Positions 42,338 through 62,639 of a stretch of DNA of 64,000 nt are shown one piece after another. The translations under genes and the position numbers were made by a program. The DNA is taken from NCBI RefSeq assembly GCF_017301735.1, contig NZ_CP071090.1, positions 930,001 through 994,000 on the forward strand, in the 5' to 3' direction. Numbering within the stretch: the first letter of the stretch is position 1; the number at the start of each line of letters is the position of its first letter. The stretch is from Pyxidicoccus parkwaysis (GTDB lineage Bacteria > Myxococcota > Myxococcia > Myxococcales > Myxococcaceae). The notes beneath the pieces were generated by a model. The model had not been told where the DNA came from, did not search any database, and worked only from the letters and a program-made list of their open reading frames with translations.

Positions 42338-43747
42338 ATGTCAGCGGCACCGCAGAACAGTCCCCGCATCGACCAGCTCAGCTCCATCCGGGCGGATGGC
42401 TCGCGGCTGGCCATCCACCCCTCGGACGTGCAGGGCCGGTTCATCACCCGGCGGCGGCTGCTGTTCGCGGTGCTGATGGCCATCTACGTGGCGCTGCCGC
42501 TGGTGCAGGTGGGCGGCCACCCGGCCGTGCACCTGGACGTGGCGGCGCGCCGCTTCTATCTCTTCGGCGGCACGTACAACGCGCAGGACTTCTGGCGCGT
42601 GCTGTTCCTCGTCACGTCCATGGGCTTCGGCCTGCTGTTCGTCACCGCGTGGCTGGGCCGCGTCTGGTGCGGCTGGGCGTGCCCGCAGACGGTGTTCCTG
42701 GAGGGCGTGTACCGGCCGATTGAGCGCTTCTTCGACGGGCCTCGCGAGCGGCGGCTGAAGCTGTCGGGCTCGCCGTGGACGCCGGGCCGGGTGGTGCGCG
42801 CGGGGTTGAAGCACGGCGCGTACCTGGGCGTGTCGTTGCTGATTTCACACGCGGCGCTGAGCCTCTTCGTGTCCGCGGGAGGCCTCGTGTCCATGGTGGC
42901 CGCGGGCCCGACGGTGTCGCCGGTGGCCTTCGCGTGGGCCATGGCCGTCACCGGCGCGCTGTACTTCAACTTCGCGTGGTTCCGCGAGCAGCTCTGCGTG
43001 GTGGTGTGTCCGTACGGCCGGCTCCAGTCGGCGATGCAGGACCGGGACTCGCTCATCATCGGCTACGACGTGAAGCGCGGGGAGCCTCGCGGGCGGATGT
43101 TGAAGGTGAAGCTCGGCGAGGTGGCGCCTCCGCGCGGTGACTGCGTGGACTGCCGTCGGTGTGTCATGGCGTGCCCCACGGGCATCGACATCCGCAATGG
43201 CTTGCAGATGGACTGTCTGGCCTGCGCGCAGTGCGTGGATGCGTGCGATGACGTCATGGACAAGGTGGGCAGGCCGCGCGGGCTCATCCGGTATGATTCA
43301 CTCAACGGGCTGGATGGACAGAAGCGCCGTGTGCTGCGGCCCCGGCTGGTGCTGTACGGCGCGCTGATGGTGGCGGCCTTCACCGGACTGGCGCTGAGCC
43401 TCGTGCAGCGCGTCCCGTTCGAGGCCAACCTGCTGCGCTTCCAGGGCATGCCGTACCTCATCGAAGAGGGCACGGTGCGCAATCAGTTCGAATTGCACCT
43501 GGTGAACAAGAACCCGAGCGAGACGACATTGACCATTCGCGTGGACAGTCCCGTGCCCGCGCAGGTGGTGGTGCCGCAGGCGGAGGTGAAGCTGGCCTCG
43601 CTGGAGAGCTTCCGCGTGCCGCTGTTCCTCACCGTCCAGCGCGAGCGCGTCACCGCGCCGTTTGTCTTCACCGTGGAGGTGAAGGACTCGGCGTCAGGTG
43701 AGGTGAAGCGGATGGAGGCGCGGTTCCTGGGGCCGACGGGTGGGTGA
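42338..43747 (+). CDS. ccoG: CcoG/RdxA Fe-S membrane protein of cbb3 biogenesis
   Basis: A 469-residue protein with about five helices and two ferredoxin-type Cys clusters: CVDCRRCVMACPTG and CLACAQCVDACD. Before them comes the family block RVWCGWACPQTVFLEGVYRP. In other bacteria CcoG reduces Cu(II) for cbb3 assembly. Residues about 379-469 form the C-terminal FixG Ig-like domain; the DNA for this part is repeated twice downstream. Start ATG 42338 after a GGAG-like site. The expected next gene, ccoH, is absent; accessory genes follow instead. Confidence 0.92.
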   Translation: MSAAPQNSPRIDQLSSIRADGSRLAIHPSDVQGRFITRRRLLFAVLMAIYVALPLVQVGGHPAVHLDVAARRFYLFGGTYNAQDFWRVLFLVTSMGFGLLFVTAWLGRVWCGWACPQTVFLEGVYRPIERFFDGPRERRLKLSGSPWTPGRVVRAGLKHGAYLGVSLLISHAALSLFVSAGGLVSMVAAGPTVSPVAFAWAMAVTGALYFNFAWFREQLCVVVCPYGRLQSAMQDRDSLIIGYDVKRGEPRGRMLKVKLGEVAPPRGDCVDCRRCVMACPTGIDIRNGLQMDCLACAQCVDACDDVMDKVGRPRGLIRYDSLNGLDGQKRRVLRPRLVLYGALMVAAFTGLALSLVQRVPFEANLLRFQGMPYLIEEGTVRNQFELHLVNKNPSETTLTIRVDSPVPAQVVVPQAEVKLASLESFRVPLFLTVQRERVTAPFVFTVEVKDSASGEVKRMEARFLGPTGG

Positions 43748-43800
43748 GGGCTCGCCTTTGAGTTCGAAGATGAAGGCCGCAGCACGGGCGTGACAGCAGG
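43453..43800 (+). repeat. ccoG 3' end repeat, copy 1 (in the intact gene)
   Basis: The last 295 bases of ccoG plus about 50 bases past its stop form the reference copy of a direct repeat. It covers the Ig-like C-terminal domain. From 43504 to 43747 it differs from copy 2 (51.3 kb) at about six positions by my count, and more from copy 3 (54.5 kb). The 5' 50 bases are less similar to copy 2 than the core, so the homology is a mosaic. Confidence 0.85.
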
Positions 43801-43896: not shown

Positions 43897-46800
43897 TCAA
43901 GAGTCGTCGAAGTTCTCCTTCCCAAATCGCTCTAGGCGTTTCATAAGTCGATCTCTCTGGCGCTTCACTGCGAGCCGCAGTGCCTCTTCGGAGAGAGACT
44001 CAAGCCCCATTGCCTTTGCCACCTCTTTGGTGGAGCCTTCTCCCAAGAGTAGCAACCGCAGGGTGGCAAGGTCCTTGTCGCTCAAGCCTCCCTTTGACGC
44101 CAACAAGTCCAGGGCGCTCTTCGCCTCCACCGACAACTCCAGTTCCTCCTTTGGGCTCCTCGTCTGGAGCTCCGCGACACCGGCAAACGCCAGCTCGCGC
44201 CGGGCTCGTGCGGACTCGGACCTCATTCGATCGGTGGCCTTGTTCCTTGCCGACTGCAAGAGATAGGTCTCAAGGCGACCCCGGTTGGGGTCGTAGCGTT
44301 CAGGCTGTTGGAGATAGGAGAAGATGGCGTCGATGGTAGAGTCAAAGGCAGTGTCGTCGCTGCATCGAAGCTCGGCTATCAATCGTCTGACAATGCGGGC
44401 GCTGTACTTCTGGAAGATATCGACGCTGGCCATGGGATCTGTCGGAGGCAGCTCGGCTTGCTGGAATGCGTTCGGGTTCAGGAGTTCCTCTCGTTCCTGC
44501 GCCGCTTGCTTCGCCCGTGCGTGCCCGATAGCGCGGTAGTGGTCAACGAGGACTTGCAGCAGTTCCCCGGCGCTCTCGCGGACATTCTGTCGGAGGCGCA
44601 CCTTGCCGAGTTCCCATGATGCCAGGGCGACTCCCCGGTCATCGCGCCAAGCCCGGGCGAATTCGAGTGCTTCTTCACACAATGCCGCCGCCCGGCTCAG
44701 TTCGGACCGCTCGGCCGCGATGAGCGCGAGTCCAAGTCTAGCGTCTACTTCGAGGCGGATGTCACCCGCATCAATGGCCAACGCAAGAGATTCTTTCAAC
44801 AGAGGCTCGGCTATGTCTGTACTTCCGGCCTTGAAGGAGAGGCTTGAGGACACATAGTGGAACTCCGCCCTGTGTGCACTAGAAGGCGCCGCTTGATTCT
44901 GAACCCGACGCAGCGTCGTGCGAGCCGCTACGTTATCGTCCAGTTCCATCTGGAATCGGGCCAATTTGACGAGGATGCCTGTCCGTACCGCATCATCTGA
45001 CGCGACGGGCATCAGCGCTCGCGCGCGTCCACATGTCTCAACTGCCTGCCCGATATGCCCAAGCTCCGCCTGGGCAATGGCTACTTCCAGCAAGAGTGAT
45101 GGGTCCTCGGAATAATTGAACTTGGCCGCACCTCGAAACCACCGCACCCGCTCCGCAGGCGGGCTCCGCAGGCGTACCAGCGTCGAAGCAGCGGTGCGCA
45201 ATGAAGCCTCCTGCGTCTCGCATGCAGTGATCTCCCAGTCTGCAAGTGGTTCGCGAGCGAGGAGCGACTCGATGGCGTGGGCGATGTTCTCGGACTCCGT
45301 ATCGAAGGTGGCAATGGCCTCCGCGCGTGCGCGTCCCCCCTGCATGTACTGCCCATGGAGACCCTCGAGCAGGGTCAAAAAGTAGGAGCCATGGTGGATG
45401 GTTGCCGTGTGGGACTCACTCAACCAGCGTGGAGCGACTTGCCGTATCGGGCGCCATAGGGCGTATCGCCCATGTGCTACGGACTTCAACAGCCCAGCTC
45501 GGATCATCTCGCGCAATAGCGAAGTTGCCTCCACAGAACCCGACATCGAAGGAGCGCCAATGCTCGCCAGAACCGCGGCAGCGGCGTGAATGTCGAAGGA
45601 GGATGGGAACACGGTGAGTAGGGAAACCGCTTGCAGGAGTTGGACGTATCGGGCGGGGCCGAGGTCCGATGGGAGCTGGGAGATTGCGACTCCGACTTCG
45701 TGAAGGAGCATCGGCAGATGGCCCAGCATTTCCACAAGCTTCGCAGCATGCGCGCCGATCTGCGGCGCCATGCTCAGCAGCAAGCTTCTGGCGCTGCCCG
45801 TCTCGACTTCTTCGAGTTTCACTCCTGGAGCGTTGATTCCTTCAATTGGTGCGCGAGACGTGGTGACAAGGAGAGTGCCCGGACGATATGGCCGCAAGGC
45901 GTTGAGTTCGCGTGAAATCTGTCGATCGCTCCATTGCAATGTATCGATGTCCTCCAACACCAGCGCGACTCGTCGCTCGGACGTCAAGGCATGGTAGCGC
46001 TGAAGGATGTCTTCCCCCGGGGGCTCACGTTCCGGAGCGAGAGCATTTACCACCTCTCTGGCGATGGTAAGTGCGGATGGGCGGCCTCCGAGTCGGCGAA
46101 GGTCGAGCACATATCGCCCATGCGGAAAGGCAGGTTCCGTACGCGAGAGGAGCTGTCGGACGAGTTGCGTCTTTCCTGTGCCTGTATTTCCTGAAATGGC
46201 GACGAGGGAGGTCTGTAATGAGACTTCCCTCACCAATAGGTCGAGCTCTCTCGGATGGACTACGGGGCCATCGACGGGAGGCGGCACCGGTTGCAGATCG
46301 GGTGTCGTGGCGGGCTCGATGAAGTACTCGTCGCCCAACAGCGTGCGCAGTCGCAATGCGCCTGACACTATTGGAATCCGCATGGGGCCCGTTGGGGCGA
46401 GGTCGAATCTTTTCCAGTTGGTCACACTCTTGCGCCGAGCCTCAAGCACTTCGACAATCCGACGGGTGACGTGTTGCTCCTTCCCGGTCCTCGCTTCAAT
46501 CAAAACCTGTCTTTGTATCGTCGAGTCAGGCCAGCTAGATGTCTGTTTTAAAGGTGCGTTTCCCTGGGTTGTATGCACCAGGATGAGCGTAAGTCTCCCA
46601 ACCTCTGCGGTTGATCGTTTGCGCAGACTTCGGCGAAGTTCCTGCATGTAGGGGCCGGCGAGATGCTCGGTATCTGAGAGCAATATGATAAAGGCGTCAC
46701 ACTGAGCGATGATGCTTGCAGTGGATTTACTGACGAAGCCTCCAGGAGGTATCGGCTTGTCGACCAGGAAGGTCTGGTGCTGAGTCTGGCGCAACGAATC

Positions 46801-47649
46801 CTCGATACGGTTGCACCACATCCGGTTTTGTTCATCGGTCTCAATGCTGTCGATGAAGACGCGTCGTGGCTTGGGAGGTGGTTTGTGCTTCTCGACATCG
46901 GCCACCTCCACAACCAGCGGGTGGGTTCTCGGCACTTCGATGACCTCGTCATTCGGCTCCGCCCGCATCGTGAACTCGATGGCGCGAGGGAACATCCTCA
47001 CGGCGAGCTTGATGCGCTCCATCCCTTCGAGTGAGAGCCAGTTCATCCATTCCGGGAGGGGGCCGGATGGGAGCGAAGGGGCCAACAGGTTCCCCGCCAC
47101 ATGCGTCCGGGCGGCCACAGCGAGCATTCGTCCCTCCTCCATGTCCATCAGGTCGGAGGAGAGTCGCGTTGTTGCGCCAGCAGCCCACGGAGCTACGCCC
47201 GCCGGGTTCCGGATCAGCTCGGCTACCGCTTGGCGCAACAACTTCCGTGCTCGCCCGAAGACCTCCGGGTTCGGGCTGGACTGCACGTAGTTCAGCTCTT
47301 CTTCCAGGCGAAGGGCGGGGGGAAGCCAGGACTCGTGCGCTTGCCGGGTGATGTTCCAAGCCTGCTCGTAGCGTTCGGGATTCCGGGTGGCGAGCCGCTC
47401 GCGCAGGACGGCTCCGACACCTGGTGCGAAGACGAACCCGTCGGGACTACGGAAGGTGACGAGACTTCCCTGCCACAGGTCTGCTTCGACGGCAGGCGAG
47501 CTCTCTGGGAGCAGTCCCAGCCGCAGCTGCCGCAGGAGCGATGGATCGACGCGGACGGCGAACGACGCGAGACAGGCGAGATCCACGGAGAGAGGTGCCT
47601 GGCGCTCGACGTGCTCGACCAGCTGCCGGGCCGCGATGGTAGTGCCCAT
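43897..47649 (-). CDS. TIR-STAND NTPase-TPR protein with C-terminal ECF-sigma-like domain
   Basis: A 1250-residue regulator. I use ATG 47647-47649, with GGAGG ahead, rather than ATG 47676. Residues 1-230 are a helical domain of unknown family. Residues about 260-395 form a TIR-like domain (RRVFIDSIETDE, IIAQCDAFIILLSDTEHLAG, PYMQEL with a Glu at the NADase position). Residues about 465-680 are a STAND NTPase: P-loop GNTGTGKT at 487-494 and Walker B VALVLEDID. A winged-helix-like part and TPR repeats follow to about 1060. The last 165 residues resemble an ECF sigma factor: region 2 RYDPNRGRLETYLLQSARNKATDRMR and region 4 GEGSTKEVAKAMGLESLSEEALRLAVKRQRDRL. Last gene of a four-gene operon; GC content is visibly lower than its flanks. 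Confidence 0.82.
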   Translation of the reverse strand: MGTTIAARQLVEHVERQAPLSVDLACLASFAVRVDPSLLRQLRLGLLPESSPAVEADLWQGSLVTFRSPDGFVFAPGVGAVLRERLATRNPERYEQAWNITRQAHESWLPPALRLEEELNYVQSSPNPEVFGRARKLLRQAVAELIRNPAGVAPWAAGATTRLSSDLMDMEEGRMLAVAARTHVAGNLLAPSLPSGPLPEWMNWLSLEGMERIKLAVRMFPRAIEFTMRAEPNDEVIEVPRTHPLVVEVADVEKHKPPPKPRRVFIDSIETDEQNRMWCNRIEDSLRQTQHQTFLVDKPIPPGGFVSKSTASIIAQCDAFIILLSDTEHLAGPYMQELRRSLRKRSTAEVGRLTLILVHTTQGNAPLKQTSSWPDSTIQRQVLIEARTGKEQHVTRRIVEVLEARRKSVTNWKRFDLAPTGPMRIPIVSGALRLRTLLGDEYFIEPATTPDLQPVPPPVDGPVVHPRELDLLVREVSLQTSLVAISGNTGTGKTQLVRQLLSRTEPAFPHGRYVLDLRRLGGRPSALTIAREVVNALAPEREPPGEDILQRYHALTSERRVALVLEDIDTLQWSDRQISRELNALRPYRPGTLLVTTSRAPIEGINAPGVKLEEVETGSARSLLLSMAPQIGAHAAKLVEMLGHLPMLLHEVGVAISQLPSDLGPARYVQLLQAVSLLTVFPSSFDIHAAAAVLASIGAPSMSGSVEATSLLREMIRAGLLKSVAHGRYALWRPIRQVAPRWLSESHTATIHHGSYFLTLLEGLHGQYMQGGRARAEAIATFDTESENIAHAIESLLAREPLADWEITACETQEASLRTAASTLVRLRSPPAERVRWFRGAAKFNYSEDPSLLLEVAIAQAELGHIGQAVETCGRARALMPVASDDAVRTGILVKLARFQMELDDNVAARTTLRRVQNQAAPSSAHRAEFHYVSSSLSFKAGSTDIAEPLLKESLALAIDAGDIRLEVDARLGLALIAAERSELSRAAALCEEALEFARAWRDDRGVALASWELGKVRLRQNVRESAGELLQVLVDHYRAIGHARAKQAAQEREELLNPNAFQQAELPPTDPMASVDIFQKYSARIVRRLIAELRCSDDTAFDSTIDAIFSYLQQPERYDPNRGRLETYLLQSARNKATDRMRSESARARRELAFAGVAELQTRSPKEELELSVEAKSALDLLASKGGLSDKDLATLRLLLLGEGSTKEVAKAMGLESLSEEALRLAVKRQRDRLMKRLERFGKENFDDS

Positions 47650-47653
47650 GAGC

Positions 47654-48634
47654 TCAGCGCCTCCGCAGAATGCCATGCATGGCGCGGGCGACCGTGAGTG
47701 TCCGGTCCCACGTGAACAGCTCCATTACACGCAACAGTTCCGGGGGCCATCGTTCAGGCGGATAGGGGACAAGTGCGCCCACAATGCATCCCGCCCGGCG
47801 CAGCATTGTCGCGAAGCTCCACCACTCCTCTTGGGAGGCGGGCACCTCGCCACCGGGGGCTGCGCCAAGCCCCAGGTCCGTCACGCACAGGACTCGCGTT
47901 CCCGGGCGGGGGAATTGCTCGGGGCCGTAGGGGCGCCACTGATGCCTGGCTCCTTTTCCGCATCCACGGGAGGGGCACGCCGCGAAGTGGAGCAGCTCAA
48001 GCCCTGCTCCCACGAGGTGGGAGAGCCTCCGCTCCAGGTGGGTTGCGTCGTGATGGAAAGGAAGCATGGCTTCACCTCGGTCGACGAGCAGCTGCACCCC
48101 ACGTGCAAGGGTGGGGGAACCGCGTAACGGAAGGGGAGCACCCAATGCCTGCCCTCTGCCGACGCGCAGCACGATGGCCTCCAGATCGAGATGATCTTCG
48201 CCAAGTGTCGAAAGCATTGCCGAGAGCACCGCCCGCGAGCGCCCGGCTTCCAACAATGGCGCTGGCTCCGGGACGGCGGCCCCCGGTCGTGGAGTGGCCA
48301 GGGCTGGATGCTCCGTGTGAACCCACTCCGGCACAGGGGCCCTGGGCCTCTGGAGTCGGGTGACCGCCACGGGGGTGTCCTTTTGCTCGTCCTCCGCCGA
48401 ATCGGACTGAAATACGGGAGGCGGTGGAGGTGGCGGCAGGAACGGGCTTATGTGGACAGGCGCGGGTTCTGGAGGAGCAATCGGCTCGACGCCAGGGAGT
48501 GGGGGCATTTCGTCACCCGGCGCTTGATGCATGACGAGAGCGGTGATGGCCGCTCGCGTCGCTTCATCTGCGGGTTGCATGCGAGACAGGGCGTATGCCA
48601 GGTCTCCGAGACTCGACGGGTGGTCGCGCCTCAT
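47654..48634 (-). CDS. degenerate vWA-domain protein of MoxR-vWA conflict operon
   Basis: A 326-residue protein. The N-terminal 125 residues are Pro-rich and disordered (FLPPPPPPPV at about 65-74). Residues about 175-320 look like a von Willebrand A domain: ARGVQLLVDRGEAMLPF puts the MIDAS position as D-R-G-E-A-M rather than D-x-S-x-S, then GTRVLCVTDLGLG and CIVGALVPYPPERWP. Many vWA partners of MoxR ATPases have such degraded MIDAS sites. It overlaps MoxR upstream by ATGA. Its stop lies four bases before my chosen start of the TIR-STAND gene. Probable role: substrate or partner platform for MoxR. Confidence 0.75.
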   Translation of the reverse strand: MRRDHPSSLGDLAYALSRMQPADEATRAAITALVMHQAPGDEMPPLPGVEPIAPPEPAPVHISPFLPPPPPPPVFQSDSAEDEQKDTPVAVTRLQRPRAPVPEWVHTEHPALATPRPGAAVPEPAPLLEAGRSRAVLSAMLSTLGEDHLDLEAIVLRVGRGQALGAPLPLRGSPTLARGVQLLVDRGEAMLPFHHDATHLERRLSHLVGAGLELLHFAACPSRGCGKGARHQWRPYGPEQFPRPGTRVLCVTDLGLGAAPGGEVPASQEEWWSFATMLRRAGCIVGALVPYPPERWPPELLRVMELFTWDRTLTVARAMHGILRRR

Positions 48635-49578
48635 TTGCGAGGTTCCTTGCGCCCATGCTTCCAGATGGTGGATGACAGCAATTGCTTGAAGGCGTCTCCG
48701 TCAGGGGCAAGCTTCAGGCTCACACACGCCCGAAGAGCATCGACATACTCAGCGGCGCTGATGCCGGGTTGCTGGTCCTTTCCGGGAAGCAGCGCCTGAG
48801 CAACGGCGAGGAGCAGTCCCTCATTCAGCGAAGGAAGTTGGGCGCGGCCGATCTCCACCAGTCGCTCACGTGTCGGGTATTCGAGTGGAAGTTCGATGCA
48901 CCGCCGTAGGAATGCGAGGGGTAGTTCGCGCTCGTCGTTGGTGGTGATGATGATGAGCGGAGCCTTGTCAGGAGTCGTCTCCACAAGCTGGCGGGTCTCC
49001 TCGACCTGGAATTGAAGCGAACCCAGGGGCACCAGGAGGTTGTTGGGGGTGTCTGGGTCCGCCTTGTCGATTTCGTCCAAGAGGACCACCGCTCGTGAAT
49101 GTTCACTCCCGAGATTTGGATCAATGGCGATCGAGGAGCCTCGGGCACCGCGAAACCTCTGGGCTTTGGCGCTCGCCTCGTCGAAGGCCCACCACAAAGG
49201 TCCCGGCGTTACATAGCGATTCTGGTCCAGTTCGAACCTTCGTCGGGCCTGGGCATCGTGGAGGCGGTTCAGCAAGTCCACTTGCCAGAGCAGGTCTTTC
49301 GCCTGCGTACGCGACGTGATGACGGTCTCGTAGTACCGCCAGCCGAGTACTTGCGCCACGCTTCGGGCCAGAGAGCTTTTCCCCGTCCCCGAAGGGCCGC
49401 GCACCAGCAACGGGCGCTGGGTCGCCAACGCGACGTTGACTCGTAGGATGATCTCCTCCGAGTAGACATAGGTGACGGCCCGGCGCTGGTCTCCCGCGAG
49501 GAGTGAAGGCTCGCGGGGGTATTCGACAGGCTTGGGGTCGAAGTGCCTGTGATACTTGAGGGTGACGGCTTCGGGCAT
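48631..49578 (-). CDS. MoxR-family AAA+ ATPase
   Basis: A 315-residue AAA+ ATPase of the MoxR/RavA type. Walker A GPSGTGKSS at 61-69, Walker B AVVLLDEIDKADPDTPNNLL at about 163-182, sensor 1 ITTNDER (Asn214) and an arginine finger in LAFLRRC. It would use ATP to remodel or activate a partner, typically a vWA protein encoded alongside, as here. It sits 13 bases downstream of the TIR gene and overlaps the vWA gene. Confidence 0.85.
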   Translation of the reverse strand: MPEAVTLKYHRHFDPKPVEYPREPSLLAGDQRRAVTYVYSEEIILRVNVALATQRPLLVRGPSGTGKSSLARSVAQVLGWRYYETVITSRTQAKDLLWQVDLLNRLHDAQARRRFELDQNRYVTPGPLWWAFDEASAKAQRFRGARGSSIAIDPNLGSEHSRAVVLLDEIDKADPDTPNNLLVPLGSLQFQVEETRQLVETTPDKAPLIIITTNDERELPLAFLRRCIELPLEYPTRERLVEIGRAQLPSLNEGLLLAVAQALLPGKDQQPGISAAEYVDALRACVSLKLAPDGDAFKQLLSSTIWKHGRKEPRK

Positions 49579-49591
49579 ATCCTGACGCTCC

Positions 49592-50806
49592 TCAGAGGTG
49601 CTTCAAATACGTGAGCTTCTTGTCGTAGAGCAGCCAGAAAGGTTGCTCTATCCCGGGCTCAAGCAAGGGGTGCAGCATGGTAATGCCAGCCTGTCTTGCC
49701 AATTCCTCGGAGAGTTGCTCGCCGCCCGTCAGTAGGAAGAAGGTGACGCCGGGAAACTCCGCGCGCAGCTTGGCCAACGCCGGAAGCATCAAGACTGACA
49801 GCCGCACGGCCACGAAGACGGGCTCCCGGCATTCGGTGATATTTCGCACGGTCTCATCGACCTTCTCGGGTGGCACGTTCAGCTTGTAGGCCAGCGCGGT
49901 CCGCACCATGCGAATCAACTCGTCGAGGCCTCCGTCACCCACCACGCCATCCACCATCGCGACACGCCAGGAGTCGCCTAGGGGCATGTCGAATGATCTT
50001 ACGACATAGAGCCAGGCCGTGCGGGAATCGTCTCCGTTGAGCGCAAGCAGGCCCGACTTCTCCTCACACTTGCCGATCTCGGCGGCGGAGCGGCAGTCCA
50101 CCCAGGAGGTCGCGATGAGGGTCATCACCTCTTCGATGGCGGCAATTCCCTGCAAGCGCGAGCGGAAAACCCGGACTCCCAGGGTGGCCTTTTCCAACCC
50201 GGCGGCCATGAGGCCCAGCGCGACTCTCATGGGAAGCTCCATCCCCGGTGTCCAGGGCTCCAGCGGCGATCCCATCCTGAGGACTGCGGATTCCAGTTCG
50301 CCAGGTTGCACCTTGGCGAGCACACCTCCCAGGCGCCGGGTGTGCCAATCCGCGACGGACTGGGAGGGGACGTGCGCGACGAGATGGTCGAGGATGCGCT
50401 GGATGGCTTCGCCCTGAGGAACGTCTGCGCGGATGGACTGCACGTCCGCAACACGTGCGGGCGCAAGCGGACTGCCATCTACCTGTTCCATTGTGACGGG
50501 CGGGAGATAGACCGGGATGAGCTTGAAACGGCCCTGCTCACTGGCATGCCGGTAGGACAGCAGGCTGACTTCGTAGGCGACGTAGCTCGACTTCAGGGCC
50601 GCCTCCGACAGCAACAGCACCGCAGCATCACACCCGCCAATCCAGGCATTGAGTGTAGAGCGCCAGTCCTGACTCAGCCGCAATTCGTCCTTGTCCAATA
50701 GGACAAGGTAACCAGCTTCGCGCAGACGCCGTGCGAGCTCGTCCCGCAGTTGCTCGCCCGCCGGTTCCTTCGCTGAGTAGCTGATGAAAATCCTCGGGGA
50801 GGACAT
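49592..50806 (-). CDS. TIR-domain protein
   Basis: A 404-residue protein with an N-terminal TIR domain: PRIFISYSAKEPAGEQLRDELARRLREAGYLV, then LDKDELRLSQDWRSTLNAWIGGCDAAVLLLSEAALKSSYVAYEV. Glu79 in SSYVAYEV sits where NAD-cleaving TIR domains have their catalytic Glu. Residues 150-404 form a second globular domain with alternating strands and helices and no motif I recognise; it may be a sensor or adaptor. ATG 50806 is preferred because FISYS then begins at residue 7; ATG 50824 adds six residues. First gene of the TIR/MoxR/vWA/TIR-STAND operon and a likely effector. Confidence 0.82.
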   Translation of the reverse strand: MSSPRIFISYSAKEPAGEQLRDELARRLREAGYLVLLDKDELRLSQDWRSTLNAWIGGCDAAVLLLSEAALKSSYVAYEVSLLSYRHASEQGRFKLIPVYLPPVTMEQVDGSPLAPARVADVQSIRADVPQGEAIQRILDHLVAHVPSQSVADWHTRRLGGVLAKVQPGELESAVLRMGSPLEPWTPGMELPMRVALGLMAAGLEKATLGVRVFRSRLQGIAAIEEVMTLIATSWVDCRSAAEIGKCEEKSGLLALNGDDSRTAWLYVVRSFDMPLGDSWRVAMVDGVVGDGGLDELIRMVRTALAYKLNVPPEKVDETVRNITECREPVFVAVRLSVLMLPALAKLRAEFPGVTFFLLTGGEQLSEELARQAGITMLHPLLEPGIEQPFWLLYDKKLTYLKHL

Positions 50807-51275: not shown

Positions 51276-51617
51276 GTAACCTCATCGAGGAGGGGACGGT
51301 GCGCAACCAGTTCGAGCTGCACCTGGTGAACAAGAACCCGAGCGAGATGACATTGACCATTCGCGTGGACAGTCCCGTGCCCGCGCAGGTGGTGGTGCCG
51401 CAGGCGGAGGTGAAGCTGGCCTCGCTGGAGAGCTTCCGCGTGCCGCTGTTCATCACCGTCCAGCGCGAGCGCGTCACCGCGCCGTTTGTCTTCACCGTGG
51501 AGGTGAAGGACTCGGCGTCAGGTGAGGTGAAGAAGATGGAAGCGCGGTTCCTGGGGCCGACGGGTAGGTGAGGGCTCCTGGAGGGCTGGGTTGACTCCTT
51601 GAAGGCGAAGCTGAATG
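51276..51617 (+). pseudogene. ccoG 3' fragment, repeat copy 2
   Basis: A second copy of the ccoG tail. The frame from about 51299 to 51571 is open and encodes the same Ig-like domain; only about four of some 90 residues differ from intact CcoG. It lacks everything upstream (membrane helices, Fe-S clusters), so it is a displaced gene end. Homology continues about 45 bases past the stop (ttgaaggcgaag). It is the boundary between the TIR/MoxR cargo and the next cassette. Confidence 0.88.
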
Positions 51618-51727: not shown

Positions 51728-54400
51728 ATGCTGGACGCGAACATCAAGACGAAGACGTACGTTCCTCCAACTTCCAGTCCGGCGCCCAAGACGGGCACGA
51801 AGGCCCCGGGCACGCCGAAGAAGCAGGTGGGGAGCTCGGCCCTCCGGGAGGCCACGGCCAAGGCGGAGAAGGCCCGGACGACCGCGGCGAAGAAGCAGCA
51901 TGAGTCGCAGGTCGCGACCCGGAAAGCCACGGCCGCGGCGGAGCGGCAGAAGACGTTGCAGGGGAAGCGGGATGCGCTGCTTCGGGAGGTGGACGCGCAC
52001 GGAGGCAAGTGGGCCCCCTCGACGGAGCGACAGAAGACGGAGGCCCTGAAGAAGACCCAGAAGGACCTGGACGCGGCCCAACGGTCCGCCACGAAGGCAC
52101 AGAAGGACGCGGAGGCCGCACGTCAGGCGGCCGTCACCTCGGCCAATGAAGCACTGGCGGCCCAGAAGGCCGCCAACGCCCAGGCCGCCCGGGAGAAGGT
52201 GGCCCCGCCCTATCCCCTCGCCGACAAGGTGACGGACGGGTTCGACGCCAACCGGCGCCTGTCCGCGGCCGAACAGCGCAAGCTCTTCGGCGCCCCCCAG
52301 GCCGCATCTCCGCGAGAGGCCGCCCAGGAGGACGCGAAGCGCGTGGCGCGGGCGCTGTCTCCCCCGAACCTCGGCTCCAAGAACCCCCTGGACCTGATGA
52401 AGCCCGGCAGCCTCGCGCTCCGGCCCGAGGCCGCGAGCAAGGAGCTGGCCGCCCTGCTCGAGAAGGGCACGAGCCCCGAGTACCGGAAGGCGTTGCTCGA
52501 GGCCGTCAAGCCGCAGCTCGAGGCCATTGGGGGGACGCTGTCGTATCCCGCCGGTGCCAGCGAGAGTCAGCCGACCGATCCAACCTCCGGAAAGGAGACC
52601 CTCGAGGCCCTGGGCAAGGCGTCCAGCACCTTGCGGCCCGAGGAGCAACGTGCGCTCGCGGAGGGCCTGGTCTCGGGGATTGGCTCCGACGAGAAGCTCA
52701 AGCAGGGCACGAGCGAAGGCCTGCGCGAAAGCCTCCGGCGGGGCGAGGGCGGCGCCTTCTCCGTCCAGCTCGCGACGGCCTTCGAGCGTGCCGGCAAGTC
52801 CAGGCACGCGGAGTCCGTCGCCCGGACCGCACAGGCCGAGGTGAAGGAGATTCGCGAGGACTTCGCGGCGAAGTCGAAAAAGGTCGAGGAGCTGAACGCC
52901 CAGGTCGCCCGGCTCGCCGCCAGCTTCGGCCCTGCGATGACCCAGAAGGAGCAACAGAATGCCCTCAACGCCTTCAAGGCGCGCCACAAGGCCGAATACG
53001 GAGCGCTGGAGGACGCGGCGAAGAAGCTGGAGGGCGCTCTCGAGGCCTCCAACGAGGTCCTGAAGCAGCCGGACTCCGCCCTCTTCAAGGGGAGGCAAGG
53101 AGGGCTGCCCGGCTTCGCGGACGAGGCCCTGGAGACGCAGAAGCAGCTCAAGGGCTTCGTGGGGACGGATGTCGGCCAGAAGTTCATTGACGCGGAGGTG
53201 GCGAAGCAGGCCAACCAGGAGCCGTCCTTCCTGGACGGCGTCTCCAACTGGCTCAAGAGCCCCAAGCTGGGCAAGGACGCCCAGGACATCGCCAAGGGGC
53301 TGACCACGTCGGTGACCAAGGGGCTGGCGAGCGCCGCCCTCAAGGCCGCGGCCAGCGGGGAGAACGTCGCGGGCGCCAAGCGCGTCTTCGAGAACGTGCT
53401 CGGCAAGAACCCCGTCCTCTTCGGCGTCACGGCCGAGGACATGAATACGCTGAAGGGGCACTTCAACGACCTGCTGGACAACAAGAAGGGGGCCGCGGAG
53501 GCGCTGGACAAGGAGCTCCGCAAGCTCTCCGTCGAGCCGCCCGGCACGACGGGGGCCTCCGGGGCGGGCAGCGCCCTCAGAGGGCTCGGCGTGGTGGCTG
53601 GCCTCTTTGGAGCCGCCAACAGTGTGACGGACGCCGCGAAGGAGCTGGACCTCGCGAACACGACCAAGGCCCTGGGGGACACGCTCTCTGCCTCGGCGGA
53701 CACCAGCCTCTTCGTGCTCGACGTCTTCGGGAAGAACGCCCAGGCGGCAACCAAGGTCCTGGGCAAGCTCGGTCCCGCGGGAGGCGTGCTGGGCGCCGTG
53801 GGTGATGGGCTCGCCGCCGCGAAGGCCTTTGGCGCCGGAGACACTGTCGAGGGCTTCGCGAAGACGGCCTCGGCGGCGGGAGGTGCGCTCCTGGCCGCCG
53901 CGGCGCTGTCCCAGTCCGTGCCCGTGGCGGGCCAGGTGGTGGGCGGCCTGCTGTTCGCGGTGGGCACGGGCGTCTCGCTCTGGAACGAGAGCCAGAAGCG
54001 CCAGGAGTCGCAGCAGGATACCAAGGCCTTCCTTCGGGGGGCGGGCTTCTCTCCCCGGCTGGCCGAGCAGCTCAAGGACCCCGACACCGCGATGCGCACC
54101 GGGCGCTTCCTCACGCAGATGGCCGAGCGGCTCCACACCACGCCTCAGGAGCTGCGCCAGCGACTGGAGCGCCTCACCGACCGGAAGCAGCTCGACACCT
54201 TCTTCTACGCAGTGGAGAAGACCCCGCACGGCGAGGACGGACGGTACGTCGCCACGGATGACACGCCCGGCACGTACGGCAGCCACACCTATGGGGCGGG
54301 TGGGCATGGCGCCTCGCAGGCGTACTCCGTGACGGAGTACTACCTGCAGAGCCTCGCGGATGCCGAGGCCTACCTGCGCAAGAACGGCGTCCTCGTCTGA
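51728..54400 (+). CDS. large coiled-coil protein with colicin-like hydrophobic C-terminus
   Basis: An 890-residue protein with no signal peptide. Residues 40-175 are Ala/Lys/Arg-rich and likely coiled coil. The middle (200-610) is helical and charged. A Gly/Ala-rich hydrophobic segment (about 620-750) includes GSALRGLGVVAGLFGAANSV and VPVAGQVVGGLLFAVGTGVSLW. A polar domain (750-890) ends with a Gly/Tyr/His stretch GTYGSHTYGAGGHG. The overall plan recalls pore-forming bacteriocins and type-secreted effectors, and its hydrophobic module resembles the protein at 34.6 kb. Function and family are unknown. It is the sole gene between ccoG-tail copies 2 and 3. Confidence 0.75.
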   Translation: MLDANIKTKTYVPPTSSPAPKTGTKAPGTPKKQVGSSALREATAKAEKARTTAAKKQHESQVATRKATAAAERQKTLQGKRDALLREVDAHGGKWAPSTERQKTEALKKTQKDLDAAQRSATKAQKDAEAARQAAVTSANEALAAQKAANAQAAREKVAPPYPLADKVTDGFDANRRLSAAEQRKLFGAPQAASPREAAQEDAKRVARALSPPNLGSKNPLDLMKPGSLALRPEAASKELAALLEKGTSPEYRKALLEAVKPQLEAIGGTLSYPAGASESQPTDPTSGKETLEALGKASSTLRPEEQRALAEGLVSGIGSDEKLKQGTSEGLRESLRRGEGGAFSVQLATAFERAGKSRHAESVARTAQAEVKEIREDFAAKSKKVEELNAQVARLAASFGPAMTQKEQQNALNAFKARHKAEYGALEDAAKKLEGALEASNEVLKQPDSALFKGRQGGLPGFADEALETQKQLKGFVGTDVGQKFIDAEVAKQANQEPSFLDGVSNWLKSPKLGKDAQDIAKGLTTSVTKGLASAALKAAASGENVAGAKRVFENVLGKNPVLFGVTAEDMNTLKGHFNDLLDNKKGAAEALDKELRKLSVEPPGTTGASGAGSALRGLGVVAGLFGAANSVTDAAKELDLANTTKALGDTLSASADTSLFVLDVFGKNAQAATKVLGKLGPAGGVLGAVGDGLAAAKAFGAGDTVEGFAKTASAAGGALLAAAALSQSVPVAGQVVGGLLFAVGTGVSLWNESQKRQESQQDTKAFLRGAGFSPRLAEQLKDPDTAMRTGRFLTQMAERLHTTPQELRQRLERLTDRKQLDTFFYAVEKTPHGEDGRYVATDDTPGTYGSHTYGAGGHGASQAYSVTEYYLQSLADAEAYLRKNGVLV

Positions 54401-54459: not shown

Positions 54460-54775
54460 TGAACAAGAACCCGAGCGAGACGGCATTGACCATTCGTGCG
54501 GACAGCCCCGTGTCCGCGCAGGTGGTGGTGCCGCAGGCGGAAGTGAAGCTGGCCTCGCTGGAGAGCTTCCGCGTGCCACTGTTCCCCACCGTTCAGCGTG
54601 AGCGCGTCACCGCGCCGTGTGTCTTCACCGTGGAGGTGAAGGACTCAGGGTCCGGTGAGGTGAAGAAAATGGAGGCTCGGTTCCTGGGGCCGACGGGGGG
54701 GAAGGGCTCGCGGGTGGAAGGCTCGCCTTCTTGAAGGCGAAGATGAATGCCAACGCACGGTCGTGGCAGCAGGGG
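54460..54775 (+). pseudogene. ccoG 3' fragment, repeat copy 3
   Basis: Third copy of the ccoG tail, starting inside the Ig-like domain (LNKNPSETALTIRADSPV). It has drifted further than copy 2: for example Val to Ala, Phe to Cys in APCVFTVEV, and a lost stop so the frame runs to 54734. It is homologous past the stop as well, ending near 54775. It marks the far side of the large-protein cassette. Confidence 0.85.
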
Positions 54776-55142: not shown

Positions 55143-55898
55143 TCAAGGTGTTGAGCGCCCGCCGATTTCCGGGAAGCGCTCATAAGCCCGCAGGAGCGCG
55201 TCCAGGTGGGCGGAGTTGTCCAGGTCGAGCGGCGAGTCCGTGAGCTGGACGACCCACCCGCCCGATGCCGTGCGCCGCGCTCGTGAGAGAATCTCGGTGT
55301 CCCGAGCCGGGTCCGGGAACCCGATGGCCTGGGCGGCAGCATCCGACCAGTAGTTCAGCCACCCGAGGTAATAGGGAATCTCGGGCGAGCGAATGTGCTC
55401 GAAGAGCTTCAGGGCGGGCAACCCCCGGCGTGGGGACGGCGGCCCCTCCAGCGTGGGTGCTATCTGATACGCGATGTCCAGAGCAGCGTCATCCGGCGTC
55501 GCATGCCCCCAGAACGCGAGAGCGCCCTCCGCTACTCGCTCAAGCACATCCGCGGCCGCCGTGATAACGGTCGCGTCTAGAGGCAGCTTCGCATGGACTT
55601 GGAGCTGAGGCTTGCAGCCAGGGCTCGCACTCGCGGATCGTCGCATTCCGGAAATGGTCACGGGGTGGCTCTCGTCGCCGTTGCATAGCAGCGGGAACTT
55701 TCCGCGTGTTGCCGCCTCAGTGAGCCAAGCCTCGCGTTGCGGTAACTCTATTGGGCGCCCTCCTTTGCTGACTTCCCACTCCAGGCGCAAGCCAGGCAGC
55801 GCCCGCTCCATGCCACGGACGACAGCGAGTGTGCGGCCGTCGTGCCCCACGAGCGTAGGCGCGTAGACGGTGAGATCGAGACGCTTTCGGGTGGTCAT
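55143..55898 (-). CDS. DUF5953-like immunity protein
   Basis: A 251-residue protein resembling the DUF5953 family of myxobacterial immunity proteins: MTTRKRLDLTVYAPTLVGHDGRTLAVVRGMERALPG, then SPEIPYYLGWLNYWSDAAAQAIGFPDPA. It is Trp/Tyr-rich in the middle and has no membrane helix or signal. ATG 55896-55898 overlaps the toxin stop as ATGA; ATG 55907 is an alternative three codons earlier. The coupling to the nuclease-like gene is the main evidence for an immunity role. Confidence 0.72.
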   Translation of the reverse strand: MTTRKRLDLTVYAPTLVGHDGRTLAVVRGMERALPGLRLEWEVSKGGRPIELPQREAWLTEAATRGKFPLLCNGDESHPVTISGMRRSASASPGCKPQLQVHAKLPLDATVITAAADVLERVAEGALAFWGHATPDDAALDIAYQIAPTLEGPPSPRRGLPALKLFEHIRSPEIPYYLGWLNYWSDAAAQAIGFPDPARDTEILSRARRTASGGWVVQLTDSPLDLDNSAHLDALLRAYERFPEIGGRSTP

Positions 55899-56677
55899 CG
55901 TTTGCATCCCGTGACGACGATTTTGAGGCTGGGATCCTGTCGAAGCAGCGCTTCTCTATGCGCGGCACTACTCACCCCAACGACGAAGCTGTATCCACAT
56001 GCCGCCGCGATATCGCGGTCCTCCTGGAACTCTTCCGCCTGCTCTTCGATCACCCGCTCCCTGAGGAAGTCACTGTATGTGTCAAATTGATAGGTCTTGA
56101 TCTCCCACAGCACACGCGCGCCGACTTGCAGCGCATCAAAGCGCTTGCCGCCAACGAGCACGTCATTGCCTGGATAACGGTTGGGCGGAAACCTGTCGGC
56201 GCACTCGTTATGCGGGACATCCTCGCCCGCGTGCGGAACCGGGACGGGCCTGCACTCAGGGCGGCGATCTCGTTCCAATGGCTCGGTAGGCACCGGAGGG
56301 AACCCATCCTGCCCTGATGGCTCCGGCTTGGGCTTTCGATTCGCGGAGGGCTCCTGCGGGGCGGGCTTCGTTTGGGGCGCGGGCTCGACTTCCTCCCGGC
56401 TACTCCCTCTCAGCTCATACGCATCCAGCGCTTCCTTGATGACGACTCCCACCACCACCACGCCAACAACGATGACTGTGCCCACGACGATCTCGGGAGC
56501 AGCCAAGACACAAAGGCCGAACCCCAAGGCGGCCGCGCCTGCCGAGGCGACCGCGCATCTTCTCGTCGGGTCGTTGAATCGGACCCGGTCATGGTCGAGG
56601 GCTGAAAAGCACCGTTCGGCAAGCACGGGCCAAGGCTGGGAAGCCTCACGGACAGCGCACCGCCCCCGTCCGTCCAC
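55895..56677 (-). CDS. DUF6310-like toxin with REase-fold nuclease C-terminus
   Basis: A 260-residue protein starting at GTG. Residues about 45-82 form two hydrophobic helices (GAAALGFGLCVLAA, IVVGTVIVVGVVVVGVVI). A Pro/Lys-rich linker follows. Residues 150-260 hold a restriction-endonuclease-like domain: RYPGNDVLVGGKRFDALQ, then VLWEIKTYQFDTYSDFL, giving a D...E-x-K active site, and a long helix with the conserved EEQAEEFQEDRDIAAACGY. Probably a DNase toxin with its immunity partner directly downstream. The IS630 element is about 130 bases upstream and may supply or disrupt its promoter. Confidence 0.7.
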   Translation of the reverse strand: MDGRGRCAVREASQPWPVLAERCFSALDHDRVRFNDPTRRCAVASAGAAALGFGLCVLAAPEIVVGTVIVVGVVVVGVVIKEALDAYELRGSSREEVEPAPQTKPAPQEPSANRKPKPEPSGQDGFPPVPTEPLERDRRPECRPVPVPHAGEDVPHNECADRFPPNRYPGNDVLVGGKRFDALQVGARVLWEIKTYQFDTYSDFLRERVIEEQAEEFQEDRDIAAACGYSFVVGVSSAAHREALLRQDPSLKIVVTGCKR

Positions 56678-56811: not shown

Positions 56812-57961
56812 AGTATGTAGCCAAAAGTTCGGAGACAAATTCGGCCTGGGTGCGCAGCATATGCCTCATGCGACGCGTGAGGAGCCCTGCCGAGCTTGGG
56901 CTGACAGCCGACGACAGGCACCGACTGGAGCGGGCACTGCGAGAGGCTCGCGATGCCCGCCACCTCCGGCGGTTGCTGGCTGTGAAACTCGTAGCCGAGG
57001 GCCAGTCCGTGGCAGACGTGGCGCGTCTGTGCGCCCTGAGCCGGCCCATCGTCTATCGCTGGCTGGGACGCTACTTGGAGTCGCACCAGTCCGAGGTGCT
57101 CCTGGACCGTCCGCGGACAGGGCGGCCTCGCGGCGCCTCGCGTCTGACCGACACGCTCCTGCGCCGCGTGGTCCAGCAGAGTCCGCAAGAGGCGGGCTGG
57201 GCGACCCACGGCTGGACGGTGCCGCTGCTGTGCACGCACCTTCGCCAGCAAGGCATCGACGTGTCGCCGCGCACGTTGCGCCGCCGGCTGCACGAGGCCG
57301 GCCTGCGCTGGAAGCGGCCCCGGTACGTGTACGTGACGCGTGCGCCGCACCTGGCGCAGAAAAAAGGGGCCTTGTCCGCCGTCTGAAGAAGTTCAAGGCG
57401 CAGTCGCCTCGTGCGGTCCTGCTCATCATGGACAGCACCGTGCTCAGGTGGTTTCCGCCGCTGCGCGCGGCGTGGGCCCCGGTCGGCGAGCCAGCCCAGG
57501 TCCTCATCACCGGGGAGAACGCCAAGCGCGCGGTGTGGGGAGCCATCAATCCACGCACCGGCCACCGCGTGGTCGCCACCAGCCAGCGCGGGCGGCAGGA
57601 GGATTTCATGGCCTTCCTGCGCCTGCTTCGCCTGGCCTACCCGGGCCGAGCGGTGCTGCTGCTGTTGGACCAGGCCAGTTGCCATACCGCCCAGCGCTCG
57701 CAGGCACTCGCAGCCCAGCTGGCCATTCACCTGCTCTGGCTGCCCAAGCAGCGCCCCGAGCTCAACGCCATGGACCACATCTGGCGGGAGCTGAAGCTGC
57801 ACATCTCGGCCAATCGCCAGTACGCCACCGTCGATGACCATGTCGATGCCGCCGTCCTGTGGCTGCTGGCGCTCACGCCAACGCAGGCCCTCCGCAAGGC
57901 GGGTATCCTCGCGGAGGGCTTCTGGTTGCGGGATTTGTTAGAGAACTTTTGGCTACCTACT
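56812..57961 (+). mobile_element. IS630-family insertion sequence
   Basis: A 1150-base element with inverted repeats AGTATGTAGCCAAAAGTTC on the left and, on the right strand, the same sequence with one change (AGTAGGTAG...). It is flanked by TA on both sides (56810-56811, 57962-57963), the target duplicated by IS630/Tc1-type elements. It carries one transposase in two overlapping frames. It appears intact. Confidence 0.88.
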
Positions 57962-57964
57962 TAG
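56868..57964 (+). CDS. IS630 transposase made by -1 frameshift (orfA/orfB)
   Basis: orfA (56868-57386) encodes the DNA-binding part: HTH SVADVARLCALSRPIVYRWLGRYL and the second HTH VSPRTLRRRLHEAGLRWKRP. At 57360-57365 six A residues followed by G form a slippery run. A -1 shift joins orfB, which ends at 57964. The catalytic part has the first Asp in LIMDSTVL, the second in LLLDQASCHT and the third acidic residue in PELNAMDHIW (Asp, not Glu). The final TAG codon uses the duplicated TA target plus the next G. Confidence 0.85.
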
Positions 57965-59104: not shown

Positions 59105-59446
59105 GTGCGTGCCCCCCTATTGATTGTGCGGAAATACCCAGACAGTCCGTGTGCGCTCGGGAGCGCCGCGGAATGCCCTCTCGCACGGAGCGTCTCGCTT
59201 GTCGGATGCCATGGGAACCCTCGGAAGAACGCCACCCAACGCAGTCAGGCGTTCTGGATGCGAAAAGAGGCCCGAGGCCCGCATCCGTCCCAAAAATGTT
59301 CGCTTTGGAATTGCTTTTGCAGCTCGGAAACAGTGGCCTGATGACACACATCAGCGCCACGTGGCTCCGTGGGTGGCGTTCAGTCGGGCCCAGCTGCTGT
59401 GCGCTCCATCCAGGAGTGGAGCGCTCCGGCGAGGGCTTCCCTGACG
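59105..59446. other. non-coding stretch between SDR and kinase genes
   Basis: A 340-base gap. Short frames occur on both strands but have no ribosome sites and no recognisable content. It contains the SDR promoter region; no clear terminator or operator was found. Confidence 0.5.
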
Positions 59447-60910: not shown

Positions 60911-61052
60911 GGCGTGCTTCGAATCTTCGCAGCCCGGACATGCGCCGGAAAGCCGGGGACGGCGTGACGACACGCCCCTCCATCATGCGCTGCTCGCGCG
61001 TGGCGCTTCCAGGCCCCCTACTGGGAGCCCGGAATCCCGCACCGCGCGTGGG

Positions 61053-61379
61053 TCAGTCGTGAACGATGATGCGGAAGCTGCCGCGCTTGTTCTCGGGCCC
61101 CACCCAGACGAGCAGCGTCGTCTCCCCGGCCTTGCTGCCGGTGAGTCGCAGCACGCCCTTGTTCGCCAGGTCGACGTCGGCCACTTCCGGGTCGTCAATC
61201 GCGACACGGACCATGCCCGGCACGCTCAGGTCCTTCTGGCCGCCCTTCTTCAGCGTCACCGTCCCTTCGGGGGCTGGCGCGGCCTCGGCGGCCTTGGCCG
61301 GCTTCGTCTCCTCCGCCGCAAGGACAGGGGTTCCAATCAACGTCAGCGCGACCAGGGCCAGCTTCATTCCGTGATGCAT
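61053..61379 (-). CDS. secreted small protein with pilus-N-like domain
   Basis: A 108-residue exported protein: MHHGMKLALVALTLIGTPVLA, cleaved before AEE. An Ala/Lys/Pro linker leads to residues 45-108 (GGQKDLSVPGMVRVAIDDPEVADVDLANKGVLRLTG), which align by pattern with the kinase's extracytoplasmic domain: G-x-x-K-x-L/I, P-x-x, and D-x-x-G-x-L-R-L-T-G. The start ATG 61377-61379 follows TGGAGGA. It lies between the sigma factor and the kinase, 142 bases from the latter, and may be a ligand or a partner. Confidence 0.75.
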   Translation of the reverse strand: MHHGMKLALVALTLIGTPVLAAEETKPAKAAEAAPAPEGTVTLKKGGQKDLSVPGMVRVAIDDPEVADVDLANKGVLRLTGSKAGETTLLVWVGPENKRGSFRIIVHD

Positions 61380-61479
61380 GGGGTGCGTCCTCCAGGGGGG
61401 TTGTTCCACCTTCACCGGGATGACACCGGCCACCTCGAGGCGTTGCACGGCACCTCGAAAATAATTTCGGCCCCCGAGG

Positions 61480-62388: not shown

Positions 62389-62639
62389 GCGCACCTCGGC
62401 ACGGCGCGTGTCTGGACCGCCACGCCTCACGCGCGTTGTTACCCCGTTCCTTCCCTTCGTTTCCATCCCCCCTCACTTGTCATTCAGGGAAGTGGCGCCA
62501 GCCTCAGTCCGCCTCGACGGGCTGAACCCAGCAGTCATTTGCATATCTCCATGCGGCTCCGTGGCATCGGAAAGGCGGGGGAATTGAAACGAGGGAGGTG
62601 GGTGGGAGACAGTCGCGGCTTTCGCTCAAGGAGGTTCTC

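What the first reader, a model, noticed from the sequence alone, without database searches (positions are those of the whole stretch)
43897..50806. Four-gene TIR / MoxR / vWA / TIR-STAND-TPR-sigma operon: candidate new conflict system
Four overlapping or closely spaced genes run 50806 to 43897 on one strand. A TIR protein with the Glu that fits an NADase is followed by a MoxR AAA+ ATPase, a vWA protein with a degraded MIDAS site, and a TIR-STAND NTPase-TPR protein. MoxR plus vWA pairs linked to STAND NTPases and effectors are known in prokaryotic conflict systems, but this order and two TIR proteins in one operon are not an arrangement I recognise. GC content is visibly below the flanks and the genes sit in an island.
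Basis: partly seen in the sequence, partly recalled or inferred. Interest (0 to 1): 0.87.

Follow-up and report, generated by a model that had tools for sequence, protein, structure and literature searches.

The report
Myxococcus TIR–MoxR–vWA immune operon, sigma-tailed
A four-gene cluster in a Myxococcus bacterium recurs in the same gene order in other bacteria and has the layout of the TERNS3 class of predicted bacterial immune systems described in 2021; it would likely stop infected cells by destroying NAD+, and its exchangeable arm ends in a sigma-factor domain, a predicted sensor or bait.

Summary
Window 43897-50806 (- strand) encodes a TIR protein, a MoxR AAA+ ATPase, a vWA protein and a long core–TIR–STAND–TPR–ECF-sigma protein, low in GC, inside a 21.3 kb insertion between ccoG and hemN. 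All 14 distinct loci found with a profile of the vWA protein carry the four parts in this order (9 in the window's family, 5 in other records, among them Chromatiaceae and Azospirillum, where the last two are one protein). The four conserved parts have near-parallel distances (r 0.93-0.95). The long protein's C-terminus is exchangeable. In 2 of 14 loci a calcineurin-like phosphoesterase replaces the first TIR.

It is not unrecognised: the layout is that of the TERNS3 MoxR–vWA ternary systems (Kaur et al. 2021, eLife 70394). Membership of the third component by sequence could not be tested. Not seen in the text read, so possibly new: the ECF sigma tail (found in 3 of 14 loci; separately on a NACHT–HEAT protein in two related genomes) and the phosphoesterase version. 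Likely mechanism: the variable arm senses infection, MoxR–vWA sets the threshold, and TIR1 would cleave NAD+. Nothing here has been tested at the bench.

The parts
49592..50806 (-). Third component (TIR1): TIR domain (res 2-147), helical region (131-248) with an EAD-like stretch, C-terminal alpha/beta domain (about 250-404)
48631..49578 (-). MoxR-type AAA+ ATPase, Walker A GPSGTGKS from residue 61
   Evidence: AAA_5 E 5e-15, bpMoxR E 4e-9; one clade with the 13 other loci, support 99/98
47654..48634 (-). vWA protein: N-terminal helices, Pro-rich linker, vWA domain (res about 175-326), D185 and D253 invariant
43897..47676 (-). vWA-L-like core (1-262) + degenerate TIR (268-400) + STAND NTPase (Walker A from 496) + TPR (about 800-1075) + ECF sigma (1078-1258)
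   Evidence: core fused to the vWA in Azospirillum
43903..44445 (-). ECF sigma-factor tail of the long protein (residues 1078-1258)
   Evidence: Sigma70_r2 E 3e-6, over the cut-off; sigma70-ECF model end to end, E 2e-9, 37.0 bits, below its cut-off of 42.9; stand-alone relatives across the family
43455..43753 (+). 3' end of ccoG, left boundary of the insertion (copy 1)
   Evidence: in 8 of 8 relatives compared the alignment with the ccoG region stops at 43734-43755 (one of these contigs ends 362 nt later)
51279..51577 (+). second copy of the ccoG 3' end (96%), right boundary of the four-gene module
54460..54709 (+). third copy of the ccoG 3' end (92% over the aligned 250 nt)

Best explanation
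The four genes form one predicted operon with the gene layout of a TERNS3-type MoxR-vWA ternary conflict system, and they likely act as an infection-triggered switch in which the variable fourth protein would sense an invader, the MoxR-vWA pair would set the threshold, and TIR1 would then cleave NAD+ to stop the cell or make a nucleotide signal. Shown: the domains, the fixed order, parallel divergence of the four conserved parts, exchange of the C-terminal arms, the conserved TIR Glu, and the position in an insertion. Inferred: that the genes are transcribed together and the proteins form one complex; that MoxR ATP hydrolysis remodels the vWA / vWA-L / TIR1 assembly; that the STAND-TPR-sigma arm is the sensor and TIR1 the executioner (the direction proposed for VMAP systems in PMC10907252; Kaur et al. 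treat the vWA-linked arms as effectors); that the target is phage or another mobile element.
For: Same order in 14 of 14 distinct loci found with the vWA profile. Pairwise distances of third component, MoxR, vWA and core correlate at r 0.926-0.947, 0 of 2000 permutations as high for each of 6 pairs. MoxR proteins of all 14 fall on one side of a branch (99/98), apart from 4 VMAP, 1 iSTAND and 1 CoxD-type MoxR. C-terminal arms differ between loci; one has a calcineurin-like phosphoesterase plus a region like the anti-phage protein HyoA (E 2e-47, 161 bits, below that model's cut-off of 1200). TIR Glu79 in 21 of 21; the TIR1 profile matches the NAD+ hydrolase AbTIR, E 2e-7. Sporadic: 8 of 147 genomes of the class. 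vWA and core are one protein in Azospirillum. Layout matches TERNS3.
Against: No TERNS3 model or sequence was reachable, so membership rests on layout. Parallel distances also follow from joint inheritance of a gene block. That the core is the vWA-L is weak by profile: the two VMAP-system vWA proteins come first among control ORFs at E 0.0067 and 0.045, but an unrelated ORF follows at 0.053. MoxR also passes the cut-off of bpMoxR, the MoxR of another subsystem. The MoxR tree has long branches in the comparison rows. No functional data; NADase activity is inferred from fold, profile match and one residue. Which protein senses and which executes is open. The search of named genomes used one peptide pattern and gave 5 loci, one of them a duplicate.
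Confidence: 0.6

Rival explanations
1. Same operon, opposite direction: TIR1 is the sensor-coupled signal maker and the fourth protein's arm is the effector; activation would free the STAND-TPR-sigma arm, whose ECF sigma domain would redirect host RNA polymerase to a defence or death regulon.
For: The sigma domain spans the sigma70-ECF model end to end and is 57% and 47% identical to those of G061 and G058; Kaur 2021 predicts that TERNS3 TIRs make a NAD+-derived signal and treats vWA-L arms as effectors, and infers a transcriptional response for ECF-like domains in TRADD-N systems.
Against: Sigma was found in 3 of 14 arms (Pfam missed one of the three, so others may hide), so it is unlikely to be the common output; arms with WD40 or phosphoesterase would need other outputs.
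Confidence: 0.25
2. The third component is an iSTAND2 (inactive STAND) protein, so this is an iSTAND2-type rather than a TERNS3-type ternary system.
For: The C-terminal domain of TIR1 aligns colinearly with the STAND domain of the same operon over 107 columns (P-loop, Walker B and sensor strands), E 0.019, probability 2%; three control profiles gave 11-37 columns with that same query. Best Foldseek row over the whole model is the TIR-NB-ARC protein RPP1, aligned to residue 388, though at rmsd 17.8. Kaur 2021 describes the same split of vWA and vWA-L for iSTAND2.
Against: The profile match is not significant; Kaur 2021 links iSTAND2 mainly to trypsin-like domains and EADs, and TERNS3 to directly fused TIR.
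Confidence: 0.2
3. A housekeeping MoxR-vWA chaperone pair (RavA-ViaA, CoxD-CoxE or NorQ-NorD type) that assembles a metal enzyme, with the TIR genes as passengers.
For: MoxR-vWA pairs do this elsewhere; the vWA model's best Foldseek match is in the NorQD complex.
Against: Fixed TIR or phosphoesterase partner, exchangeable arms, sporadic presence (8 of 147 genomes), low GC and position in an insertion.
Confidence: 0.04

Closest known systems
[quoted passage not shown] 2021, PMC8195603)
   Same: Gene layout: TIR fused to an alpha+beta third component, MoxR, separate vWA, separate vWA-L with variable C-terminal domains; proteobacteria with multicellular habit
   Different: ECF sigma tail after STAND-TPR, and a calcineurin-like phosphoesterase on the third component (2 of 14 loci), are not mentioned for this class in the text read; sequence identity of the third component untested
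iSTAND2 ternary systems (same paper)
   Same: Separate vWA and vWA-L genes; possible inactive STAND fold in the third component
   Different: Third component carries TIR, not the EAD/bDLD3 plus trypsin link reported as predominant there
VMAP ternary systems (Kaur et al. 2020, PMC7159879)
   Same: Order third component, MoxR, vWA; enzymes and EADs on the third component; variable arms
   Different: No VMAP-C match; MoxR lacks the WxhapG and PsWR motifs (0 of 14; VMAP controls 4 of 4, one of them with PRWR); vWA and arm are separate genes
[quoted passage not shown] 2020)
   Same: TIR on the third component, MoxR without the VMAP extensions; a same-genus example has TIR-iSTAND, MoxR, then a 1649-aa protein, presumably the vWA
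   Different: PF19995 does not match; the one iSTAND MoxR compared falls outside the clade of 14, on a long branch
Avs/NACHT-type STAND defence proteins
   Same: STAND with superstructure-forming repeats in the arm; a HyoA-like region in the Azospirillum arm
   Different: Here the STAND is a fused arm of a four-gene MoxR-vWA system

Membership tests
TERNS3 ternary system | 5' gene: third component with alpha+beta domain, most often fused to TIR | tested here: met
   TIR in 12 of 14 loci, phosphoesterase in 2; C-terminal domain profile in 14 of 14; predicted alpha/beta domain
TERNS3 ternary system | MoxR AAA+ ATPase gene | tested here: met
TERNS3 ternary system | vWA and vWA-L-plus-effector encoded by separate adjacent genes | tested here: met
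   13 of 14 loci; fused in L057. That the core is the vWA-L rests on position, this fusion and weak profile hits
TERNS3 ternary system | Third-component domain homologous to TERNS3 by sequence | not testable with these tools
   No clear Pfam match in the C-terminal part; no TERNS3 alignment or accession in the text seen; supplements not available
iSTAND2 ternary system | Inactive STAND module as third component | tested here: inconclusive
   hhalign to STAND E 0.019, probability 2%; Foldseek RPP1
VMAP ternary system | VMAP-C domain (PF20028) | tested here: not met
   matches in 4 of 147 genomes (3 over the cut-off), none at these loci; no member of 21 matches; the model does match a VMAP control
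VMAP ternary system | MoxR N-terminal motifs WxhapG and PsWR | tested here: not met
   0 of 14 against 4 of 4 controls
iSTAND ternary system | iSTAND domain (PF19995) | tested here: not met
   one match in 147 genomes, at another locus; no member of 21
beta-propeller ternary system | vWA component with a beta-propeller C-terminal to the vWA | tested here: not met
   none found in the window's vWA or long protein, though MoxR passes the bpMoxR cut-off and the L055 arm has WD40 repeats
Thoeris / FxSxx-COOH TIR proteins | Curated score of ThcB4 (220 bits) or FxsC (130 bits) | tested here: not met
   19.7 and 16.6 bits
Anti-phage defence system | Protection against phage in a living host | not testable with these tools
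   no experiment

The most novel reading that the evidence does not exclude
The arm is a bacterial NLR with a built-in sigma factor: a TIR-STAND-TPR receptor that displays an ECF sigma domain at its sensor end as an integrated decoy for invader proteins that seize host sigma factors or RNA polymerase, and that fires TIR1 when the bait is touched. A separate NACHT-HEAT protein with a related sigma tail, beside a Schlafen-type gene (L040, L041), would be a second case.
Probability: 0.2. Interest if true: 0.85.

Novelty: new variant of a known kind. Interest (0 to 1): 0.55.

Why it matters
In the papers seen, TERNS3-type systems rest on sequence analysis alone. A compact Myxococcus operon with a catalytic-looking TIR, an ATPase, a vWA and an exchangeable arm makes the class testable, and bears on a disagreement in print: whether the variable arms of MoxR–vWA systems are sensors or effectors. 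The sigma tail, seen on two different STAND architectures in one bacterial family, would link immune receptors to transcription or to integrated decoys as known in plants.

Tried and rejected
SAV_2336 (NF041121) as relative of the vWA protein plus core: recalled, not supported; one weak match elsewhere in the genome and none in the fused Azospirillum protein. PADLOC and NCBIfam gave only generic or sub-cut-off matches; MadB_ATPase E 4e-22 (78.7 bits, cut-off 475) for MoxR was not pursued. The vWA profile matched no solved structure by sequence and no vWA family of Pfam in any of 28 members (the best family there was MEDS, 3 members, best E 0.001); the vWA call rests on motifs and predicted structure. 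hhalign of the TIR1 C-terminal part against one iSTAND and two VMAP proteins gave nothing (one-sequence templates, little power). In the fold search with the TIR1 model the TIR domain fills the list, so the C-terminal domain was barely tested. Frames of 855-856 aa ending in sigma in L042 and L043 may be spurious; I do not count them as fusions. A first search for VMAP-C in the window's genome and 14 control genomes found nothing anywhere.

A sigma tail on a MoxR–vWA arm was not found in print by the searches with 'sigma factor' among their terms (67, 83, 86) or by the MoxR–vWA, Myxococcus-defence and TERNS3 searches, in a library of openly licensed papers only. In PMC7159879 'sigma factor' occurs 0 times in the main text; in PMC8195603 'sigma' occurs 5 times, and the passages shown (12 of 15 places for six terms) tie it to TRADD-N/EACC2 systems. 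Their supplementary lists of effectors could not be read.

Full report
WHAT IS THERE. TIR1 has a TIR domain, a helical region and an alpha/beta C-terminal domain. Part of the helical region resembles effector-associated domains: the profile of the C-terminal part has as its best control hit (E 0.0079; best stretch residues 17-74) the EAD1-bearing N-terminus of a VMAP protein (EAD1 at residues 5-86), and one of 21 members matches EAD7 weakly, E 0.037. MoxR is a AAA+ ATPase. The third protein matches no Pfam family, but its predicted structure is most like vWA domains, and its best Foldseek match is in the MoxR–vWA complex NorQD. Its two metal-site-type aspartates are invariant in 28 of 28 sequences, so the site is not simply degraded. 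The fourth protein is a core domain, a degenerate TIR, a STAND NTPase with intact Walker A, TPRs and an ECF sigma domain.

RECURRENCE. A profile of the vWA protein found 9 loci in 8 of 147 genomes of the class, all in the window's family, 5 loci in genome contigs, one a duplicate of G020, and one in IMG/VR: 14 distinct loci. In 14 of 14 the third component, MoxR, vWA and core follow in this order on one strand. In G042 and G040 TIR1 seemed missing by BLAST, but the gene there has the same C-terminal domain behind a calcineurin-like phosphoesterase. In Azospirillum vWA and core are one protein. Distances of the four conserved parts correlate at r 0.926-0.947; joint inheritance alone can give this. 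All 14 MoxR proteins lie on one side of a branch, 99/98, apart from 4 VMAP, 1 iSTAND and 1 CoxD-type MoxR; the tool warns of long branches among them.

VARIABLE ARMS. Behind the core: TIR-STAND-TPR-sigma (window, G061; in G058 sigma is seen by alignment, 47% over 177 residues, though Pfam is silent), TIR-STAND-TPR without sigma (G020), NB-ARC-TPR (G073), AAA with LuxR-type HTH (first G017 locus; sigma region 4 also scores there, on HTH stretches), wHTH-AAA (L054), WD40 (L055, and proteins P0005-P0007), AAA (L056), phosphoesterase with a HyoA-like region (L057), and arms with no clear match (G042, G040, second G017 locus, L058). The sigma domain belongs to a family of mostly stand-alone ECF-type frames in the window's family. 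A NACHT–HEAT protein with a related sigma tail lies beside a Schlafen AlbA_2 gene in G034 (Pfam), with equivalent frames in G033. The tree groups those two with stand-alone sigmas (98/97), apart from the window–G061 pair (100/97).

WHERE IT SITS. The 3' end of ccoG is present three times (43455-43753, 51279-51577, 54460-54709), bounding the four-gene module and an 889-aa orphan gene. Between the ccoG and hemN matches, 18 of 24 genus genomes with both on one contig have under 450 nt; two have 702 and 920 nt; four are large: the window's genome 21.3 kb, G068 29.1 kb, G066 6.2 kb, G076 5.0 kb. Two more genomes have them on different contigs and one has no hemN hit. In G076 the insert holds an AAA_15/AAA_21 ATPase and transposase pieces and ends in a 77-nt ccoG remnant before hemN. 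So the system lies in an insertion hotspot. I saw no phage-type integrase among the window ORFs scanned, which are not all ORFs of the insertion. How the ccoG copies arose is open.

WHAT IT IS. Kaur et al. 2020 (PMC7159879; sections 8, 9 part 1, 20-22, 35 part 1 and passages read) define MoxR–vWA ternary systems. Kaur et al. 2021 (PMC8195603; section 6 and passages read) add iSTAND2 and TERNS3, in which vWA and vWA-L plus effectors are separate genes; TERNS3 third components are most often linked to TIR by direct fusion. The window matches that layout. VMAP-C, iSTAND and the VMAP MoxR motifs were tested and not found. Whether the third component is TERNS3 or iSTAND2 by sequence could not be settled: a colinear 107-column match to the operon's own STAND domain is suggestive but not significant.

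HOW IT LIKELY WORKS. The fixed parts are the TIR (or phosphoesterase) protein, the ATPase, the vWA and the core; what changes is the arm. A fixed enzyme with exchanged arms fits arms as sensors and TIR1 as executioner, as proposed for VMAP systems in PMC10907252 (passages read). Kaur et al. treat the arms as effectors. I commit to the first at moderate confidence; NAD+ cleavage is inferred from fold, the profile match to AbTIR and Glu79. The sigma tail could be bait or a transcription output.

TAXON. Two members of the same genus carry names through matching proteins and contigs (Myxococcus landrumensis for G061, M. fulvus for G058), so I place the window's genome in Myxococcus; the family name Myxococcaceae is recalled.

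Noticed in passing
43455-43753, 51279-51577, 54460-54709: Three copies of the ccoG 3' end split the ccoG-hemN insertion into modules; the ccoG-hemN gap is under 450 nt in 18 of 24 genus genomes and 5-29 kb in 4, with an ATPase-bearing insert and a ccoG remnant in G076 (L063).
   Followed up: partly
51731-54400: 889-aa protein without a Pfam match at E 0.01, alone between the second and third ccoG copies.
   Followed up: partly
55143-56677: DUF5953 and DUF6310 gene pair; a 75% identical stretch lies about 10 kb downstream of ccoG in G079 (L066 14305-15416).
   Followed up: partly
L040 9648-14220 and L041 5624-10214: NACHT-HEAT protein ending in an ECF sigma domain, next to a Schlafen AlbA_2 gene, in two related genomes (Pfam run on L040 only).
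   Followed up: partly
59441-62471: Kinase, sigma-region-4 and pilus-N-terminal-like genes whose close match in G054 and G068 (88% and 86%) lies away from ccoG, so this segment appears to have moved.
   Followed up: no
L057 8647-13071: Azospirillum fusion of vWA, core, calcineurin-like phosphoesterase and a HyoA-like anti-phage region in one protein.
   Followed up: partly
56850-57964: Transposase-type gene split over two reading frames.
   Followed up: no
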